A stretch of DNA of 36,509 bases from a virus: positions 1-36,509 of the IMG/VR virus record IMGVR_UViG_3300045790_003105; one strand, 5' to 3'. The translations under genes and the position numbers were made by a program. Under the pieces are notes generated by a model that had not been told where the DNA came from, did not search any database, and saw nothing but the letters and a program-made list of their open reading frames with translations. This document shows, one piece after another, positions 1,175-29,098 of the stretch. The first letter of the stretch is position 1; every line of letters begins with the position of its first letter.

Positions 1175-4100
1175 TTAACCAGCTACTCCACCATCAACCG
1201 TATTGGCCAATGTCCATGTAACAGGACTGACGGTTATTATGTCGCCGCTTGAATTTTTACTAGTTTTTGCACTAGCTTTGTTATTTACGGATGTTATTTT
1301 CAATTGTCCAAAATATGGGACGCCGCTATCACTTTCATGGCTTGTGGCTCTGCAAACAGCTACTAAATTTAATGTTTGCCATAATGTAGAAGATGTTGTG
1401 TATTCAACCCTACATTTAGTTATGCCGTTACCGTAAGTATCAACCCCATTGCACGTTGCTATATATTCCTTTTCACCGTCGTCATAAACAGCGAATAAAT
1501 ATATTAAAGGTCTGTTGGTTGGGTTTGCGTTTGTGTGACTTTCAACATCGATATTCAATATTTGTTTTTGGTTGGCAATTCTATTTGCTGAAAAGGAAAG
1601 ACCTTCAAATTCTGGGGAATGTATATCGTCACTGGTAACGTAAAATAACTCTCTACTGTTTTTTGCAACTTGATTAATTACTTCTAAAAAATATTGGCTA
1701 TAGACAACAGTATCGTTTGAATTTACTGAGGATATTTTAGCGTTACCTGCTGTAATGCCACCTGAAAACGTTCCAGTGGCCGCTTCCAAAACTGGCGTCC
1801 TTATCGTTTCACCAGCTTTAATATGTTTACCTTGGATCACATCATCCGCTACAAAATCACCATTTAGTTCTAATTTTGTTTCTTCGCTATTTAACGAAAG
1901 TACTTTTACTCCGTCTTTGTTGTACCAATTAAATACCGCGCCCTTTGAATTAATAGCGTTTATAGTTCCATCTTCATTGGTTACAACCGTGATCCCAGTG
2001 CTTGAACCATCTGGTAAAGTGACACCGAAGAACGCCCTCGCTAATAATTCACCAACGTCTGTTTGTAATGTTTGAAAAAACGTACCCGCAGAGATTGTGA
2101 TCTCTTCATCAGCGTCATTTGTTACTGTAATTGAGGTCTTTTTGATTGCTTCAGATAGGGGCAGTGTTACCCATTGGTTTGTGCTATTTGCTGCTACACA
2201 GGCAACAGCGTCCGTTTCATCGGTGATATTTCCATCCGCATCAATGCAATAACCTACCGTTGCACGGGTGTATTCAAATACGGCTGCAATGTCATTATCG
2301 ACTCGTGCCACTTCATTAACCAATGATTCAACACTTGCTGAATTTTCAGTTGTTTTTGTGGTTATCTCTTCTTGATATACAGCCAGAGCACCTTTGAATG
2401 TTTTGTCATCTCGTTGCATTGCAAGTTGATTATTGATAAGTGCAATTTGAGCTGCGGCACTACGCTGACCCAACGAACCCAATTCATCATTTAAAAATGC
2501 GAATGATGTTAGAGATTGTCTGAACGTATTTGATTCTAGTATTTGTTGATGTGAATTAACTCGAGTAAGAACGGGAGTAAACTCAGTTTGACTAACTTTG
2601 TCTTCAATGCCTTTGCTGTTAATTATTGAATTTACTTCGGTCAGACTTGCGTATTCACCGTCTAACAAAATGCTAGTGAGCATACTTGTGATAGTTTGCT
2701 CACCATCTAAGTTATCTTCACCAACGAAAAATTTAACAAGGGTCATTTCACCTTGTAAACCACCTAATACTGCTTCTAGAGCAGCATCAATATCACCGCC
2801 GACGATGGCTGATATATCACCTTTCAACTCAACCTTAAGGGACTCAAGTTGTACTTTACTTGCTGTTTGAGATATTAACGATGAATGGGCTGTGACTTGC
2901 CCTTCTAATACTTCAACTTGATTTTTATAACCAAGTAAAGATGCTTTAAAACCAACATTGTCTCCTATTAACGCAATAGCTCCCGCGAACGTGCTTTGCA
3001 GTGAATTGGGGATTGCTTCTGTGTCTTGGCGTAATAGTTCTAAAGCGTTATTAGTGGTTTCCGTTGCTGTTTTGTTAGATGTTATGTCGCGGTCAAATTT
3101 ATCAAACTGCTCTTCTGCAACGTCATTTGAAACTGCACCAATTAACTCTGGTGTAACATTCGAGTTTTTAATATCTTCACGATCTGCCAAAGCGCCAACA
3201 TAAGGATCTTCACCTTTGGCTAAATTTAGTAACTCCCACTCGTAGAGTAAATTATCTGAATTAACATCACTTCCACTTATCCATAAGCGAACATACCTGG
3301 TCATTTTATTTAATGAATCAACAGTTGGTAGTGCTACACCTACTGGATAATAGCTATCGATAGCTTCTCGACTCAGTTCATAACCTTCAATTGTACTTCC
3401 GTCACTAGAACCTTGCCCAAGCAACCAACTATAATTTGTATTGTCAGAACTAATGCAAATACCATATTTGAATCTTCTACCATCGGCTGCATAAAAATAT
3501 ACTCTAGAATTTGCGATATATTTTAATTCACCTAGATCAACCTGAATATATTGAGAGCCAGTTCCTAGTTGAATTAGTTGTGCACCAATTGCTTTACTTC
3601 CATCCGTGAGCGCTGATTCATTATTAGGTAATACAGAATAGGTAAGATTTGCGTTCGTTAATAAATTGGTGTCTTTATATTTTTTTACTAAATCTGTGTC
3701 GATTTGGTTTTGAATATATTGTTCGCTAATTTCTTCATTAGCACTTCTTTCAAGCTTGACATTGTATTCGTCTGGGTAAGGTTCTCTAGATTTTGGAATG
3801 AAGAATACGTGGCTTGCCGCAACGCTTAAATCTTGTGGGCTGTTAGGATCAGATTTACCGCCACCAGCATAATTAGAACCTGGTACCGGACACTCACCAT
3901 AAGCTGCTTTAACTCGACCAAATAAAACTGGTGTGGGAAATGATTGTCCATCTATTCCCCAAACTAATATCCCTGGGGCTCCACCACCACCACTACCGGC
4001 GTAAGTGTTTACAAAATCATATTCACCGACACTGCCAGGCAAACCTGAAATGTCTATTACTGAATTGGGGCTTGCTGATCCCCCTCTTGATATAATTATT

Positions 4101-17905: not shown

Positions 17906-17937
17906 AAAAAAGGCTTCACAATGGAAGCCTTTTCTTT
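17906..17937. terminator. Bidirectional terminator upstream of terminase
   Basis: AAAGGCTTC and GAAGCCTTT form a 9-10 bp stem with loop ACAATG. On the minus strand it is followed by six T residues, on the plus strand by TTTTCTTT. It follows the PH-domain gene and separates lysis genes from terminase genes. Confidence 0.75.
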
Positions 17938-18388
17938 AATCTAATAGTGAATCTATGGACCGCTTAACCTTCATCGGGTTCTCAATACCATTAAGTATTA
18001 GGTCTGAACTGCCTGTGCCAGTGAGGACTACAGAGCCAGAGCCTAGCAATCTTTCCAGTATGCCTTGCTTAACTTCAACTGTTTCAATCTTAGTTAGCCT
18101 AACCTCTTCAGTCTTACGTGCAATGATGCCATCCTTACGTACTACACGTTTAGATGTAACCCCACGTTCTTGGGTCTTAATACCTAAGATCTTATAAGCT
18201 GCAATAGCTAATACTATATAACCAACAATATGTGTTGGGTTCTCTTGTCCTGGTACATCACTTGAACCAGCAACCAACAACAGTCCAAACAACACCAGTA
18301 TTGTAGGGAATATCCAGACCATCCAATGCAACTTAAATAACTCAATGATTGATTCATCTGCTGATAATGACTTCTTAATATAAGACAT
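17936..18388 (-). CDS. PH-domain membrane protein
   Basis: A 150-aa protein with two hydrophobic helices near the N-terminus (about 22-40, WMVWIFPTILVLFGLLLVAG, and 55-68), followed by a bacterial PH-like (bPH_2) domain: TSKRVVRKDGIIARKTEEV, LTKIETVEVKQGILERLLG, GSGSVVLTGTG. The order 'membrane hairpin then PH' matches YdbS/YdbT-type proteins. A good AAGGAA ribosome site precedes the ATG. It lies in the late operon between lysis genes and terminase, so is made late in infection. Function is unknown. Confidence 0.78.
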   Translation of the reverse strand: MSYIKKSLSADESIIELFKLHWMVWIFPTILVLFGLLLVAGSSDVPGQENPTHIVGYIVLAIAAYKILGIKTQERGVTSKRVVRKDGIIARKTEEVRLTKIETVEVKQGILERLLGSGSVVLTGTGSSDLILNGIENPMKVKRSIDSLLD

Positions 18389-19308: not shown

Positions 19309-19802
19309 TGTGTAACCTTCATTATCTTGTTCTTATCACTACTTGATTTAGTTGTACCTACCCAATAGGCGATTGACGATCCCCAAGCAGTAACCACTTG
19401 GCCAAACAACATAAATACGATATTTGCATTTTCTTTAGGTACTGTAATTGTCATTAACCCATATGCACCAACTGCTACTAAAATAGTAAGTAACAAACAT
19501 ATAACCATCGGCATTGGGTGATCTTTATGGTTTAACCTGGCACTCTCACGATCTTTAACTTCTAGTGCAAAAACATCTACACCAATCTTTTCCATTTCAA
19601 GTTTGAACTGATTATCTAATCGCTTAATTTCGGCTAACTGATCAGGTGAAGCGTTAGTTACTAATCTCTCTAAGTCTTGAATACTGGCATCATCACCTAA
19701 TAATTTACCAGATAAGAACTTAACAGCACCGCCAGCTAATGGACCGCCTATTGCTGTAGCCAGTGTTGGAGCAATAGCAGCTAATGTATTCTTCCAATTC
19801 AT
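19305..19802 (-). CDS. Holin (GTA 3TM-type)
   Basis: A 165-aa membrane protein resembling the GTA_holin_3TM family. The N-terminal part is Ala/Gly-rich (IAPTLATAIGGPLAGGAVKFL). A charged segment with VKDRESARLNHKDH, typical of this family, precedes two hydrophobic helices (MVICLLLTILVAVGAYGLMT and VFMLFGQVVTAWGSSIAYWV). It would open the inner membrane for endolysin. The ATG at 19802 shares a base with the endolysin stop (TGATG); an in-frame TTG three codons earlier is less likely. Confidence 0.78.
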   Translation of the reverse strand: MNWKNTLAAIAPTLATAIGGPLAGGAVKFLSGKLLGDDASIQDLERLVTNASPDQLAEIKRLDNQFKLEMEKIGVDVFALEVKDRESARLNHKDHPMPMVICLLLTILVAVGAYGLMTITVPKENANIVFMLFGQVVTAWGSSIAYWVGTTKSSSDKNKIMKVTQ

Positions 19803-20215
19803 CACTGCCAATCACCAGTTAACATTTGATTAGCTAAAGCCAATGCACGGCCTTTAACTTGATTAGCCCATCGACTATCAAGCATTTCTTTAGCTGCGGT
19901 TTCATAATCTTTAACCTTGAATGCAGCCAACATATTCTTAAACTTCATCAAACGAGGAATACCCATATTGAATGCCATGTTTACAATGACACCTTGACGC
20001 GCACAGCAATGGCCCATCAATTGGACCTTGCCGTTTAATTCTTTTCTTACTTTCTCTAAATCATTAGCAAGTAAATAAGCAGCTTCTTCTTCTGTTAATG
20101 GGTTAGCATCTAAGTTACGTCCATAACCTATTGTTGTTGCACCAGCCGAACATAAATAAGGCTGACCTCTAAAACCTTCGTGACGCTTAACTTGTTCAGT
20201 TGTATTTAAACTCAT
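19802..20215 (-). CDS. Endolysin, T4-type lysozyme (GH24)
   Basis: A 137-aa muramidase that cuts peptidoglycan at lysis. The catalytic signature is E13-x8-C22-x5-T28 (HEGFRGQPYLCSAGATTIGYG), the E-8-C/D-5-T triad of T4-like lysozymes, here with Cys in place of Asp, as known in P1 Lyz. Other landmarks are TIGYGRNL and the region near VIVNMAFNMGIPRLMKFKNM. The start is set at 20215 because GAGG lies 6 bases upstream; a longer TTG-start frame reaching 20293 crosses a terminator and is rejected. No signal peptide in the chosen frame, so export depends on the holin. Confidence 0.88.
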   Translation of the reverse strand: MSLNTTEQVKRHEGFRGQPYLCSAGATTIGYGRNLDANPLTEEEAAYLLANDLEKVRKELNGKVQLMGHCCARQGVIVNMAFNMGIPRLMKFKNMLAAFKVKDYETAAKEMLDSRWANQVKGRALALANQMLTGDWQ

Positions 20216-20232
20216 ATAAACCTCACACACAT

Positions 20233-20260
20233 AAAAAAGCCCGGGCATTTCTGACCGGGC
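20233..20260 (-). terminator. Terminator immediately before the endolysin (tR'-like)
   Basis: On the minus strand GCCCGG, a 10-base loop, CCGGGC and then six T residues. A GC-only stem and long T tract make this a strong terminator. It lies between the late promoter and the first lysis gene, as lambda tR' does, so expression should depend on Q antitermination. Confidence 0.85.
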
Positions 20261-20291
20261 AAACAATAACAACAACAGGAATATCGGGAAC

Positions 20292-20335
20292 AAAAAAGGC
20301 TGTACATTTCCTCTAAGTGAAGAAATTGACAGCCT
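20292..20335 (-). terminator. First of two stacked terminators in the late leader
   Basis: On the minus strand AGGCTGT pairs with ACAGCCT (7 bp) with a further inner stem ATTTC/GAAAT, followed by TTTTTT. With the terminator at 20233-20260 it forms a tandem block on unmodified polymerase. Confidence 0.75.
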
Positions 20336-20373: not shown

Positions 20374-20505
20374 CCATTTATTGAAAAATAACCATAAAAA
20401 AACAGTACTGGCTTAAAAAACAGCTATTTCTTCATAAAAAAAATAGTTTTTGTGAGATATCTGCCATTGTTTTATATATTCTTTTCATTATATTAATTAT
20501 TACTT

Positions 20506-20544
20506 AAACAAAGATGTTTATTAGAAAGTTTGTTTGTGTATAAT
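20506..20544 (+). promoter_or_regulatory. Promoter with inverted repeat upstream of the accessory island
   Basis: A perfect TATAAT (20539-20544) lies 36 bases before the ATG. A weak -35 (TTTATT, 20517-20522) is 16 bases upstream. The inverted repeat AAACAAA (20506-20512) and TTTGTTT (20529-20535) brackets this -35 region and could be an operator. It gives the island transcription independent of the lytic programme. Confidence 0.55.
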
Positions 20545-20580: not shown

Positions 20581-21354
20581 ATGAGTCAAAAACCCCTACC
20601 ATTACAAAATGAAATTGTAGAAAAATTAAATGAATTAACTGTTACTGGTGAAGTTAATGATATCGCTCTTCAAGCAGTTAAAGTTAAAATCAATAAAATC
20701 ACTGATAGTGCTACAAAACACCGAATGCTTGGAATGTTTTTTGCTGTAAAGAATGATGTAGCCAGTGTAATCAAACATTTCAAAATAGCAATTAAGTTGT
20801 ATGGCAATTCACCAGAAGTAATAATTGATTACGCAATTGCTTTAAATAACGTTTATAGATATGACCTATCATATGAATTTTTAGAAACTTTAATAAGTAT
20901 ACCGTCAATAAATAACTTTAAAACAGCTATACTTTCTTGTACGGAATGTTGGGATTTTGAAAAAGCTATTTCTATTTATGAGCTTTTTAAAAAAGCTCAT
21001 CCAGAAAAAAATGAAGCTGATGTAAAAGTCGAGAGTATTATGGAATTTTACAATGAAGCGAATGTACAAAAATCAATCGCAGAAACGTTAGGTTTTGATG
21101 ATAATTATAACAAAGTTATTTTTTCTGCCATCCAAATGGTCAATGAATTCACAACTGAGAACGTTTATCATTACACCATTAGAAATAACGATGTTACCTC
21201 GTGGTGTTCATTTGTTTGGAAAGTGAATGAAAACACTAAAAATGTAGATGATTTGAGTGACCAGCTAGATAACTTGTTAATTGAAAACTATGAATTAATT
21301 GATATTAATAAGTTGGTTTTTAGATTAGAAAAAGGAGATGTTTCTGGTGATTAA
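20581..21354 (+). CDS. TPR-like repeat protein of accessory island
   Basis: A 257-aa helical protein. Residues 30-150 show helix pairs of TPR type, for example HRMLGMFFAVKNDVASVIKH, SPEVIIDYAIALNNVYRYDL and FEKAISIYELFKKAHPEKNE. The last 90 residues are acidic and unlike a repeat. A good AAGGA site precedes the ATG. It overlaps the next gene by 8 bases, so the two are translated together. It lies on the strand opposite to its phage neighbours and is very AT-rich, both signs of a moron. TPR proteins usually bind partner proteins; here the likely partner is the HEPN-like protein. No enzyme motif seen. Confidence 0.65.
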   Translation: MSQKPLPLQNEIVEKLNELTVTGEVNDIALQAVKVKINKITDSATKHRMLGMFFAVKNDVASVIKHFKIAIKLYGNSPEVIIDYAIALNNVYRYDLSYEFLETLISIPSINNFKTAILSCTECWDFEKAISIYELFKKAHPEKNEADVKVESIMEFYNEANVQKSIAETLGFDDNYNKVIFSAIQMVNEFTTENVYHYTIRNNDVTSWCSFVWKVNENTKNVDDLSDQLDNLLIENYELIDINKLVFRLEKGDVSGD

Positions 21355-21727
21355 CAAGGATGAGTTTAAAAATTTTGCTACCGACGATATTACAAGCGAA
21401 GAGTTTGTTTTACGAAACAAAGCTTCAAGACTTTATTACCATCTATTCCATTCAATAAAAGAGTTCTTACCGATGGAACCTCGCCATAATGAAAAAGGGG
21501 GGAGTCATAAGAAAATATCAAACTGTCTAGCAAAAGATTTTTTACATCTTCCCAATAAGATGGATTATGTGCGCCTTGCTATATTGATGAACAAATGTAA
21601 AGACATAAGAACTGAGGCCGATTATAAACTAGACGAGGATTTTAATTTATCGTCGTTTGAGCTTTTGGCAAAAGAAAGCGATAAAGCGTTACAGTTAATT
21701 AAAGAAATTGAGCCTTCTGCGGCTTAA
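21347..21727 (+). CDS. HEPN-like protein of accessory island
   Basis: A 126-aa helical protein. The segment NKASRLYYHLFHSIKEFLP, then SHKKISNCL, then CKDIRTEADYKL follows the pattern of UPF0332-type HEPN proteins (SAYYAxFHA, HK, RxxADY). HEPN proteins are often RNases or adapters in toxin-antitoxin and phage-defence systems. The classic R-x4-6-H active site is not evident: the position after Arg carries DY rather than His, so catalysis is uncertain. I chose GTG 21347 because AAAGGAG lies 9 bases upstream; the ATG at 21338 overlaps that site. Paired with the TPR gene. Confidence 0.6.
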   Translation: MINKDEFKNFATDDITSEEFVLRNKASRLYYHLFHSIKEFLPMEPRHNEKGGSHKKISNCLAKDFLHLPNKMDYVRLAILMNKCKDIRTEADYKLDEDFNLSSFELLAKESDKALQLIKEIEPSAA

Positions 21728-21852
21728 CTTAGATCCTCTGTAAATTTGTCATTTTTAACCCCTTCATATTCTATGAAATAATACTTACACAGTGCTAAAT
21801 CAGTAAATTACAACTATAAATTAAAATAGAATGTATTTAGTGTGAGATTTTC

Positions 21853-22119
21853 ATGGAAAGAAAAAAGTTAAACAACTTAGATTACAGTATTAATACCCAA
21901 CTTCGTGATAGAAGAAAAGAGTTAAACATGACTATGCTTGAAGTGGCTAGGTGTTTAGGCAAACCACACAGTTACGTTGGTCTAATTGAGTCCGGCCAAA
22001 AGAGTCTAACCACTGGTGAGTTACAGGTTTACTGCAGTGTACTTAGTATTCCACTAGAAATAGTGATCAACATATCTAAAAAAGACGTCATGTGGAAATT
22101 CAAGCCGCCTCACGCTTAG
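21853..22119 (+). CDS. XRE-family transcription regulator
   Basis: An 88-aa protein with an N-terminal HTH (QLRDRRKELNMTMLEVARCL, then KPHSYVGLIESGQKSLTTGE) of the Cro/CI-XRE class, followed by a short C-terminal tail. It is on the same strand as the TPR and HEPN genes, 125 bases further on, and its end overlaps the end of the Q-like gene by 20 bases on the opposite strand. It may regulate the island or itself. It differs from the phage Cro and CI proteins at 27 kb. Confidence 0.75.
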   Translation: MERKKLNNLDYSINTQLRDRRKELNMTMLEVARCLGKPHSYVGLIESGQKSLTTGELQVYCSVLSIPLEIVINISKKDVMWKFKPPHA

Positions 22120-22483
22120 CAATAAAATATCCCTCTAATTGAGCAGTGGCCATATCCATCCACTGCTTAACACTATCTTTGTTCCAACGCTTACCATTTG
22201 CCTTTAAAGGTAACCTAATTGCAATAGTACGATAACCAACCTGAGCAATGTAAAACCACTTAAATGCATTTATTAATTGTTCATCCTTAACAAACAATTT
22301 AGCTATTGCCTGGTCAATTTCAATTAACCGGCTTTCTGGAATTTCAAACTGTGAACCGCCCTTCTTAACAACAAACGGCTGAATTTTATATGAACCTGCT
22401 TCTGAATTTGGAGTGCAACTACTTGCCCACTTTCCCCAAAGGTCCAGTTCTTCATAAAGTGAAAACTCAATTTGAATACCCAT
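22100..22483 (-). CDS. Late antiterminator Q-like
   Basis: A 127-aa protein similar in layout to the phage antitermination protein Q family (PF06530 type): an N-terminal LDLWGKWASS, a central ESRLIEIDQAIAKLF, then a sigma-like helix-turn-helix region (FKWFYIAQVGYRTIAIRL) and a C-terminal helix. Q proteins join RNA polymerase at a late promoter and let it read through terminators. It is the last early gene, and the candidate late promoter with two terminators lies 1.7 kb downstream. The accessory island has been inserted between the two. Confidence 0.7.
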   Translation of the reverse strand: MGIQIEFSLYEELDLWGKWASSCTPNSEAGSYKIQPFVVKKGGSQFEIPESRLIEIDQAIAKLFVKDEQLINAFKWFYIAQVGYRTIAIRLPLKANGKRWNKDSVKQWMDMATAQLEGYFIAKREAA

Positions 22484-27308: not shown

Positions 27309-27331
27309 TAACTGTATTCAGGGTGATTAAA

Positions 27332-27718
27332 ATGTTACGTACTTTTTTAGATAAACTCATGAAAGATAGAGGGATCTCGCAAAACGAACTATCTCGTAGA
27401 AGTGGAGTTCCTCAACCAACAATTAAAAGAATACTTGATGGAGAGAGTAGAGAGCCTAGGAGAGGTAACATTGAAAAAATAGCAAAATGTTTTGGTTTAT
27501 CTGTAGATGATTTTTATAACCAAAATAATGGGGATTTAGAAAGCTCAGAAATAGGAACTGGACCGCTATATTCAACAAGTGATAAATACAACAACGCTAG
27601 CAAAGAAAAAAAGTTATTAACTGATTATTTTGCAGATCAGCTTTTGGATATGCCACAAGAAGAGGCAGAAAAATTAAAGCAAATCATGGAGACTTTGCGT
27701 GGAACAAAGAAAAATTGA
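27332..27718 (+). CDS. CI-type prophage repressor, short form
   Basis: A 128-aa repressor. The HTH (LMKDRGISQNELSRRSGVPQ, then PTIKRILDGESREPRRGN) occupies residues 8-65. The C-terminal half is a short acidic helical region, probably for dimerisation. The S24/LexA-like peptidase domain of lambda CI (about 230 aa) is missing, so RecA-stimulated self-cleavage is not expected. The ATG at 27332 is chosen because AGGGTGA lies 7 bases upstream; the frame also has GTG at 27323. It overlaps the next gene by 20 bases, so both are made in the lysogen. Confidence 0.85.
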   Translation: MLRTFLDKLMKDRGISQNELSRRSGVPQPTIKRILDGESREPRRGNIEKIAKCFGLSVDDFYNQNNGDLESSEIGTGPLYSTSDKYNNASKEKKLLTDYFADQLLDMPQEEAEKLKQIMETLRGTKKN

Positions 27719-28157
27719 CCACCCACCACTTTTAGTAGCAGGGATTCACGATCACACATTACAAGAATTAGAAGAGTTGACTGTAATACCATTCCCTAAC
27801 TCAGAGAGGCGCTCTATACTATTTGAATCTTTGAAAATTTATATCGGGCAATTTAGTAAATTTAACATTAACATCGAGGCTTGGATTGACGGCTCATTTG
27901 TTACAAAAAAAGAGAACCCTGATGATATTGATATGGTCGTGTTAATTTCAGAAGTTGACGTTAACAAATTAAGCGAGGATAACAAAAATTCACTTAGAGC
28001 TTTGCTAGATAAAAACACCTGTTTAGGCCGTTTTAATTTGGATGTATACTATACTTCTAAAGAAAATCGAGATAAAAAAGCGTATTGGAGAGGTTTGTTT
28101 GGCTTTCAAAGGGATGAAGTAACCCCAAAAGGTCTGGTTCGGATTACATGTTCATGA
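27699..28157 (+). CDS. Nucleotidyltransferase-like protein (DUF6932 type)
   Basis: A 152-aa protein with a polymerase-beta-like nucleotidyltransferase motif: AWIDGSFVTKKENPDDIDMVV contains the G-S pair and the D-x-D metal residues, so an active fold is possible. The preceding ERRSILFESLKIYIGQF and the final part fit the DUF6932 family as I remember it. The GTG start has GGAG 8 bases upstream and overlaps CI by 20 bases. Minimal nucleotidyltransferases often inactivate a partner toxin by adding nucleotides. Here the likely partner is the overlapping 315-aa gene. Confidence 0.72.
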   Translation: MEQRKIDHPPLLVAGIHDHTLQELEELTVIPFPNSERRSILFESLKIYIGQFSKFNINIEAWIDGSFVTKKENPDDIDMVVLISEVDVNKLSEDNKNSLRALLDKNTCLGRFNLDVYYTSKENRDKKAYWRGLFGFQRDEVTPKGLVRITCS

Positions 28158-29098
28158 ATTCAATAAATTTCCTAAAATCAAAAATTGAAGAAGTTTCTCA
28201 ATTCATAGATTTAGACGAAAAGAAGTTAGCTGAAGACAGCTCGAACTTTTCGCTCTCTCTTGAATTAAGTTCTATGAAACAACACAAAGAGCACCTTCAA
28301 ACTGAATTGAGAAAAGAATTAGAATTCCGTAATAAAGAGGTGTTCGAGTTACGGTTAATTAGTAGTTTGGTTAATTCAGGTTCGATACCGCTAAGGCTAT
28401 TAGGTGATATTTGCGATCCTATACACAAAGCATTTAATCACGCCGCTTTCTTTGTTCGTAATAAGGTGAATTCGGTTAATAAATTGCCATTCGATTTAGT
28501 TTACGAAAATGATTTGCGACTTTCAGGAATTCAGCATGGTTCCTGCAGGTTACAGATTACGGGGAATGTATCTACTGACTTGGCTGGTGATAATCAATTA
28601 AGTGACGCTTATTATTCCATATTTAAAATATTAGAAAGTGAAAGTGATGGTGGTAAAATCTCTTTCAAAGAGGTTGCTCCTACTATTGGAACTACAGCTG
28701 TAAAACATCTAGATAGATTATTTGAGACTTTAGAAAAGGAAGGGGTTGCCGCTGAGTTCACTTGGGATTCACCAGATGGTAAGTTTTACCGTTGGGGTGG
28801 TAGTTTAGAAGATGTTCGGTTGGCAAGGCTTAAGCTAAACAGAGTATCAACAAGTGAACCCGTTAGTGTGGAAATTTCTGGAATGGTGGTTAAGCTAGCT
28901 AAGTCGGGATCTATACAAGTTGAAGAAATAGAAACCAAACAAAAGGTTGTTGTTTTGTTTGGTAAAGATCTTATTAAAAAAGTTAACACTTTGACTTTAA
29001 ATACCTATGTAAAACTTGAAGTCGATAAAATAACCTCACTAGACGAAGTTACTGGTGTGGAAAAAAATCAATTTCATTTACTTGATGTGAAAAACTAA
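28154..29098 (+). CDS. Unknown partner of the nucleotidyltransferase (rex position)
   Basis: About 315 aa, starting at the ATG that overlaps the previous stop (ATGA); an ATG two codons earlier also exists. The first 70 residues are predicted coiled coil (SKIEEVSQFIDLDEKKLAED). A central segment (DLRLSGIQHGSCRLQITGNV, then LAGDNQLSDAYYSIFKILE) is of a kind I recall in nucleotidyltransferase-linked proteins; a further globular part contains GSIQVEEIETKQKVVVLFG. No membrane helix. A terminator follows 30 bases later. Co-expressed with CI in a lysogen; exclusion or defence role is inferred from place only. Confidence 0.55.
   Translation: MNSINFLKSKIEEVSQFIDLDEKKLAEDSSNFSLSLELSSMKQHKEHLQTELRKELEFRNKEVFELRLISSLVNSGSIPLRLLGDICDPIHKAFNHAAFFVRNKVNSVNKLPFDLVYENDLRLSGIQHGSCRLQITGNVSTDLAGDNQLSDAYYSIFKILESESDGGKISFKEVAPTIGTTAVKHLDRLFETLEKEGVAAEFTWDSPDGKFYRWGGSLEDVRLARLKLNRVSTSEPVSVEISGMVVKLAKSGSIQVEEIETKQKVVVLFGKDLIKKVNTLTLNTYVKLEVDKITSLDEVTGVEKNQFHLLDVKN

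What the first reader, a model, noticed from the sequence alone, without database searches (positions are those of the whole stretch)
20581..22119. TPR + HEPN-like + XRE island on the opposite strand between Q and the late promoter
Three AT-rich plus-strand genes interrupt the minus-strand Q-to-lysis order and have their own perfect TATAAT promoter. The TPR and HEPN-like genes overlap. HEPN-like proteins recur in defence and toxin-antitoxin systems, but this one lacks an obvious R-x4-6-H active site, so it may be an adapter or a divergent RNase. The set looks like a lysogenic accessory module.
Basis: partly seen in the sequence, partly recalled or inferred. Interest (0 to 1): 0.75.

Follow-up and report, generated by a model that had tools for sequence, protein, structure and literature searches.

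The report
Prophage TPR–HEPN two-gene cargo module
A temperate phage carries a two-gene cargo cassette, a repeat-containing (TPR) protein overlapping a probable RNA-cutting HEPN protein, that recurs at many different places in unrelated phages and looks like a variant of a known toxin-antitoxin family in which the usual enzyme partner has been replaced by a possible sensor or restraint.

Summary
The TPR gene (20581-21354 +) and HEPN gene (21338-21727 +) are real, overlap, and form a conserved pair. HEPN-only searches recovered about 35 distinct relatives in lambda-like, Mu-like, P2-like and other gammaproteobacterial phages and prophages, plus one plasmid. Nearly every one is directly preceded, usually overlapped, by the same type of TPR protein. 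In the reciprocal search of 395 genomes, all 12 near-full-length TPR matches lie beside a HEPN gene. The pair is more AT-rich than its flanks in 34 of 34 loci and occupies different sites, including the P2 gpA-gpQ defence hotspot: typical prophage cargo. The HEPN model is confident (pLDDT 92). Its relatives are PF05168 'class II' HEPN toxins, whose partner is a nucleotidyltransferase (MNT); here a TPR protein stands in the MNT's place. The canonical Rx4-6H is changed (R91-x3-D95), but an invariant H57 in the helix 2-3 insert matches the alternative active site proposed for AF0298-like HEPNs, so 'inactive adapter' is not the favoured reading. The XRE gene is not part of the module, and the promoter is weakly supported. 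Most likely: a TPR-restrained HEPN RNase acting against incoming phages or as prophage addiction. Toxicity and defence are untested. New variant of a known kind.

The parts
20581..21354 (+). TPR protein, 257 aa: TPR helices about residues 8-139, linker helices, C-terminal alpha-beta-beta-alpha-beta domain about 174-251; putative antitoxin/sensor
   Evidence: ORF; AlphaFold2 pLDDT 84.6; profile match to TPR structures E 5e-33; Foldseek prob 1.0 to TPR proteins, though E > 0.01; matches the partner profile of other loci
21338..21727 (+). HEPN protein (phrog_5176), 129 aa, or 126 aa if GTG 21347 is the start; putative RNase toxin/effector
   Evidence: phrog_5176 E 6e-17; pLDDT 91.6; profile match to 9xbd E 3e-20 and 2hsb/AF0298 E 6e-15; hhalign 99.4% to MNT-associated HEPNs
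21347..21354 (+). likely 8-nt gene overlap (GTG start of HEPN inside the end of TPR)
   Evidence: AAGGAG about 9 nt upstream; N-termini of relatives align here; inference
21506..21508 (+). codon of invariant H57 (helix 2-3 insert), proposed alternative catalytic histidine
   Evidence: 36/36 TPR-class and 10/10 MNT-class sequences; literature precedent PMC3710099
21608..21625 (+). codons of R91-T-E-A-D95-Y96, altered HEPN motif at the end of helix 3
   Evidence: R, D and Y invariant in TPR-class; helix 74-96 in the model
20539..20544 (+). TATAAT, candidate -10 element of the pair; -35 poor
   Evidence: weak
21853..22119 (+). XRE/HTH_3 regulator, 88 aa; neighbour, not part of the conserved module
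   Evidence: PF01381 E 3e-8; 38% GC; no similar protein near the pair in the other loci tested

Best explanation
The island is a two-gene cargo cassette (moron) of a temperate lambda-like phage. The HEPN protein is most likely a dimeric, metal-independent RNase of the PF05168 / AF0298-like group, whose active site is built from R91 with D95/Y96 at the end of helix 3 plus the invariant H57 from the helix 2-3 insert. The upstream, translationally coupled TPR protein takes the place that the AMP-transferring MNT antitoxin has in related modules. It holds the HEPN protein inactive in the lysogen and releases or activates it when another phage infects, or when the cassette is lost, leading to RNA cleavage and growth arrest. 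Shown here: gene pairing, fold, conserved residues, single partner switch, mobility, low GC, purifying selection. Inferred: RNase activity, restraint by TPR, the trigger, and expression from the prophage.
For: Pairing: HEPN-only searches give loci in which a 220-293 aa TPR protein directly precedes the HEPN gene, including loci not used to build the TPR profile (partner E about 1e-12 to 1e-57). Reciprocally, the TPR profile in 395 genomes has 12 near-full-length hits and all 12 lie beside a HEPN gene. Partner switch: more distant HEPNs (archaea, Deltaproteobacteria, Dyadobacter) are mostly preceded by about 110 aa MNTs; TPR-partnered and MNT-partnered HEPNs are the two sides of one branch, support 100/99; the TPR partner is unrelated to MNT (hhalign prob 0.5%). 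Catalysis: H57, R91, D95 and Y96 invariant, E22-x3-R26 in 34/36 and 36/36 TPR-class members; Anantharaman 2013 proposes this alternative active site for AF0298-like HEPNs, and 2hsb (AF0298) is among the best structural matches. Cargo: sites include the tape measure/minor tail interval, Mu-like tail operons, the CI repressor, the P2 gpA-gpQ hotspot and a MobQ plasmid; GC below flanks in 34/34 loci. Selection: omega 0.07-0.31 in the close pairs where it could be computed; TPR evolves faster than HEPN (mean identity 18% against 31%), Mantel r 0.80.
Against: No experiment on any member was found. The canonical Rx4-6H is not intact, so catalysis is a prediction. Expression in the lysogen is unknown; the promoter is weak by sequence and no terminator was found. 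No complex was modelled, so TPR-HEPN binding is inferred from linkage alone. Y96, equivalent in character to the AMPylated tyrosine of MNT systems, stays invariant although no MNT is present in the window. Yersinia phage YP3 carries a HEPN gene without the TPR partner, which fits poorly with an obligate antitoxin. Many copies lie inside tail operons, which could mean late rather than lysogenic expression. Defence-model matches in PADLOC are weak (HEPN_IX, best E 1e-5).
Confidence: 0.55

Rival explanations
1. Pure addiction module: HEPN is the toxin, TPR the antitoxin, and the role is stable maintenance of the prophage or plasmid, with no phage sensing.
For: Gene order and coupling as in type II toxin-antitoxin pairs; a copy on the 10-kb MobQ plasmid p5AsACE; chromosomal copies at a fixed site near frr-pyrH-tsf in three related genomes.
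Against: The partner is large (257 aa) and fast-evolving, more like a sensor than a small labile antitoxin; the position in the P2 gpA-gpQ defence hotspot in Vibrio phages.
Confidence: 0.22
2. Non-catalytic regulator or scaffold: the altered HEPN no longer cuts RNA and, with TPR, binds host or phage proteins or RNA to alter the host (lysogenic conversion).
For: Canonical Rx4-6H not intact; HEPN domains fused to nucleotidyltransferases are generally inactive (PMC3710099).
Against: Strict invariance of H57, R91, D95, Y96 and the near-strict E22-x3-R26 is what a catalytic site predicts; the same alternative His occurs in AF0298-like HEPNs.
Confidence: 0.13
3. Virion or late-phase function: the pair serves tail assembly or lysis timing, as it often sits within tail operons.
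For: Upstream neighbours are often tape measure, baseplate hub or portal genes.
Against: The same pair sits beside CI, near gpA, beside integrase-type genes, on a plasmid and in plain chromosomal sites; its GC departs from the neighbours; here it runs opposite to the late genes.
Confidence: 0.05
4. Counter-defence: the HEPN protein is a decoy or inhibitor of host HEPN systems, delivered by the phage.
For: Homology to host MNT-associated HEPNs; HEPNs act as dimers, so mixed dimers are conceivable.
Against: Predicted active-site residues kept; near-obligate TPR partner; also found on plasmid and chromosome.
Confidence: 0.05

Closest known systems
Class II HEPN/MNT toxin-antitoxin modules (PF05168/PF01909; Yao et al. 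2020, PMC7641770)
   Same: Homologous HEPN (hhalign 99.4%), same gene order with the partner upstream and overlapping, conserved R..(A)DY and His.
   Different: Partner is an unrelated TPR protein; no MNT or GSx10DxD motif; partner switch once on the HEPN tree.
AF0298-like HEPN-T proteins (PDB 2hsb; Anantharaman et al. 2013, PMC3710099)
   Same: Fold and alternative active site: R kept, canonical H replaced by D, conserved H in the helix 2-3 insert.
   Different: AF0298 is archaeal and its relatives here are MNT-associated; the window family adds E22-x3-R26 and a TPR partner.
Tha, prophage HEPN anti-phage system of Staphylococcus aureus (PMC11087260)
   Same: Prophage-borne HEPN with an extra, non-HEPN region; RNase triggered by phage tail proteins; must be kept off in the lytic cycle.
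   Different: Tha is one 301-aa protein with canonical R265-x4-H270 and is regulated by Ith; no TPR protein; Gram-positive. The trigger of the window pair is unknown.
P2 gpA-gpQ hotspot systems such as old-tin (Rousset et al. 2022, PMC9122126)
   Same: Vibrio P2-like relatives carry the TPR-HEPN pair at this same site.
   Different: The genes are unrelated to old, tin or the other systems validated there, as far as the text shows.
PHROG 5176 (HEPN) and PHROGs 17809/22649/37103/9890 (partner)
   Same: The HEPN belongs to phrog_5176 (E 6e-17); the partners of relatives fall in the four PHROGs named, the window TPR weakly in 17809.
   Different: PHROGs annotates all as unknown function and does not link them.

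Membership tests
HEPN superfamily, HEPN-T / PF05168 | four-helix HEPN fold | tested here: met
   AlphaFold2 pLDDT 91.6, pTM 0.85; Foldseek best hits 1wwp, 2hsb (TM 0.63), 1ylm, 5yep, prob 0.84-1.0, but all E > 0.03
HEPN superfamily, HEPN-T / PF05168 | profile similarity to known members | tested here: met
   profile vs 9xbd E 3e-20, 2hsb E 6e-15 (profile includes MNT-class rows); TPR-class-only profile vs MNT-class HEPNs hhalign 99.4%, E 1e-21; 25 of 46 aligned members hit PF05168
HEPN superfamily, HEPN-T / PF05168 | Pfam match of the window protein itself | tested here: not met
   no Pfam hit for the window protein
HEPN superfamily, HEPN-T / PF05168 | canonical Rx4-6H at the end of helix 3 | tested here: not met
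   R91-x3-D95-Y96 instead
AF0298-like HEPN-T subgroup | R kept, H replaced by D, alternative conserved H in the helix 2-3 insert | tested here: met
   R91, D95, H57 invariant; H57 at the start of helix 56-67, between helix 22-43 and helix 74-96; criterion from PMC3710099
HEPN superfamily RNases | RNase activity | not testable with these tools
   needs purified protein
HEPN/MNT toxin-antitoxin (class I or II) | adjacent MNT with GSx10DxD | tested here: not met
   no PF01909 match in the window; TPR partner unrelated to MNT
HEPN/MNT toxin-antitoxin (class I or II) | RX4HXY toxin motif (class I) | tested here: not met
Type II-like toxin-antitoxin pair | two overlapping genes, partner upstream, co-inherited | tested here: met
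Type II-like toxin-antitoxin pair | toxicity neutralised by the partner | not testable with these tools
   needs expression assay
TPR protein | tandem helix-turn-helix TPR repeats | tested here: met
   Pfam alone is below cut-off
Prophage moron / defence cargo | variable site, atypical GC | tested here: met
Prophage moron / defence cargo | own promoter and terminator | tested here: inconclusive
   TATAAT with weak -35, no terminator found
Prophage moron / defence cargo | protection against phages | not testable with these tools
   needs plaque assays
Tha | single protein with C-terminal HEPN and RX4H | tested here: not met
   two genes, R-x3-D

The most novel reading that the evidence does not exclude
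The TPR protein is an infection sensor that directly switches on a HEPN RNase, forming an undescribed prophage-borne immune module that arose once by replacing the AMPylating MNT antitoxin with a TPR sensor and then spread by horizontal transfer through gammaproteobacterial phages of several morphotypes; the RNase would use the alternative His active site.
Probability: 0.35. Interest if true: 0.8.

Novelty: new variant of a known kind. Interest (0 to 1): 0.62.

Why it matters
[quoted passage not shown] A clean natural partner swap, with HEPN kept and MNT replaced once by TPR, would let one ask what restrains and triggers the HEPN protein when AMPylation is not available, and would test directly whether the alternative-His HEPN active site proposed in 2013 works. 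It also gives a simple marker (an overlapping 250 + 130 aa pair, AT-rich, in prophages) for annotating unknown phage cargo: four partner PHROGs and phrog_5176 now have a proposed joint function.

Tried and rejected
Single-sequence searches with the window proteins found no relative in phages, plasmids, viral contigs or genomes; relatives appeared only at permissive E-values and were confirmed by gene context and profiles, not by those E-values. The combined 7-member HEPN alignment was too diverse for pattern search. XRE as a third member: rejected. TPR C-terminal domain as a relic of MNT: tested, rejected. Literal R31-x6-H38 as the catalytic motif: rejected, since it lies in helix 2 and is shared as the RxYYxMxH stretch; moreover the collection scans selected for that stretch, so its invariance is not evidence. 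E. coli copies: none found with two divergent DNA queries, which does not exclude diverged copies. Empty-site comparison: no close relative of this phage was found (L182 is unrelated apart from the VRR-NUC gene). Rfam: no RNA family. Late promoter: only a minus-strand TATAAT at 20492-20487, no good -35.

Full report
Observation. The window is a 36.5-kb virus record of a lambda-like temperate phage: the large terminase is 45% identical to lambda gpA, with CI-like and Q-like regulators. No close relative was found in the collections, and the host is unknown. Three + strand ORFs interrupt the minus-strand order between a Q-like gene (22100-22483) and the lysozyme (19802-20293). TPR (29% GC) and HEPN (35%) stand out against a 38% background, XRE (38%) does not. 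HEPN is annotated here from the ATG at 21338, but the GTG at 21347 behind AAGGAG fits the family better. The TATAAT at 20539 is real, but its -35 is poor and the promoter scan does not call it.

What the genes encode. HEPN belongs to phrog_5176, of unknown function (E 6e-17). Its AlphaFold2 model, built on window and fetched-locus sequences, has pLDDT 91.6 with helices 7-15, 22-43, 56-67, 74-96 and 104-128. Best folds are HEPN proteins (1wwp, 2hsb, 1ylm, 5yep); Foldseek E-values are weak, as is usual for small helical bundles, but its probabilities reach 1.0. Sequence profiles reach PDB 9xbd (E 3e-20) and 2hsb/AF0298 (E 6e-15). The TPR protein models at pLDDT 84.6 as TPR helices followed by a C-terminal alpha-beta-beta-alpha-beta domain; TPR is confirmed by profile and fold. 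Two uncharacterised 242-259 aa phage proteins are the only strong viral fold matches (E about 1e-6).

The pair is a conserved unit. A permissive tblastn pointed to phages of Pseudomonas, Vibrio, Klebsiella, Acinetobacter and Yersinia. In all but the last the HEPN gene is second in a pair after a gene of about 250 aa. Pattern and profile searches built on HEPN alone then gave many more loci. In the gammaproteobacterial class almost every HEPN gene is directly preceded by the TPR protein, typically overlapping by 4 to 35 nt or within a few nt. Exceptions: the orphan in Yersinia phage YP3 and short partners at L076 and L078. Reciprocally, the TPR profile in 395 genomes found 12 near-full-length matches, all beside HEPN; the many weaker matches cover only the repeats, i.e. 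ordinary TPR proteins. In the same sample 14 genomes carried a HEPN match; one of these (G324, E 4e-5) is doubtful. Both genes are under purifying selection (omega 0.07-0.31 where computable) and their distances correlate (Mantel r 0.80, 0 of 5000 permutations as high); linkage alone would give this. The TPR partner diverges faster (18% against 31% mean identity).

Partner switch. HEPNs more distant than this class, from archaea, Deltaproteobacteria and Dyadobacter, are mostly preceded by a minimal nucleotidyltransferase of about 110 aa. The two HEPN sets are homologous (hhalign 99.4%) and form the two sides of one branch (100/99; midpoint root, some long branches including the window protein). 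TPR and MNT are unrelated, and the window has no MNT. These relatives match what Yao et al. 2020 (PMC7641770) call class II HEPN/MNT pairs, defined by PF05168 without RX4HXY.

Active site. Anantharaman et al. 2013 (PMC3710099) state that in PF05168 proteins the motif His is often replaced by Asp, and that AF0298-like members have another conserved His, in the insert between helices 2 and 3, that could form an alternative active site. The window family fits in every point: R91 and D95/Y96 at the end of helix 74-96, H57 at the start of the insert helix, all invariant; and E22-x3-R26, the Ex3[KR] motif they mention, in 34/36 and 36/36 TPR-class members. H57, R91, D95 and Y96 were not part of the multi-sequence search patterns, so their invariance is not built in.

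Cargo character. Sites differ among phage types: after tape measure genes in lambda-like and other siphophages, in Mu-like tail operons next to baseplate and tape measure genes, beside the CI repressor, and between portal and gpA in Vibrio P2-like phages. The last is the gpA-gpQ locus, which carries old-tin in P2 and is a defence hotspot in E. coli P2-like phages (PMC9122126). The pair is also on a 10-kb MobQ plasmid and at plain chromosomal sites. In 34 of 34 loci its GC is below that of the flanks.

Function. From gene order, homology and cargo character, the favoured model is a HEPN RNase restrained by TPR that acts on infection or on loss of the element. The nearest functional parallel is Tha, a prophage HEPN RNase triggered by tail proteins (PMC11087260); this is a parallel, not membership. 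Because the pair runs opposite to the late genes, antisense late transcription might silence it in the lytic cycle, as described for noncontiguous operons in that paper; this is speculation, and the late promoter was not located.

Novelty. No paper in the open-access library uses TPR-HEPN or HEPN-TPR, and related searches gave no description. The library lacks most subscription papers and preprints. DefensePredictor (PMC13092281) validated four HEPN-containing systems in E. coli and lists TPR among the domains of its figure; which operons these are could not be read here. The kind (HEPN two-gene conflict module) is known; the partner, the spread and the alternative active site make it a new variant.

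Noticed in passing
L020 and L024 (Serratia sp. M24T3; Thorsellia anophelis), also L092 and L098: Two divergent TPR-HEPN pairs lie 3-4 kb apart in the same orientation in one prophage region, suggesting stacking of variants with different specificity.
   Followed up: partly
L005 3501-3860 (Yersinia phage YP3): HEPN gene without a TPR partner, directly downstream of a tandemly duplicated gene of about 100 aa (2883-3494).
   Followed up: partly
L139, L140, L141: Three related small genomes (2.4-2.8 Mb) keep the pair at the same chromosomal site next to frr-pyrH-tsf, an apparently fixed, domesticated copy.
   Followed up: partly
window 27323-29098 +: CI-like repressor followed by an overlapping two-gene cassette (phrog_9194, 152 aa; phrog_6603, 316 aa) of unknown function in the immunity region; another candidate cargo pair.
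   Followed up: no
window 17936-18388 -: Membrane-flanked-domain protein (phrog_3707, listed as moron) between the small terminase and the neck gene.
   Followed up: no
window 20487-20492 -: TATAAT on the minus strand upstream of the lysozyme, a candidate late promoter -10; no matching -35.
   Followed up: partly
PDB 9xbc and 9xbd: Two recent HEPN entries with nearly identical sequence that differ at the tyrosine of the RxxxDY motif (Y in 9xbd, F in 9xbc), hinting that depositors are testing this tyrosine, which is invariant in the TPR-partnered family too.
   Followed up: no
L107, L113-L121 (Mu-like prophages): Several downstream neighbours of the pair in the sampled phages match anti-repressor families, another cargo type near the same site.
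   Followed up: no
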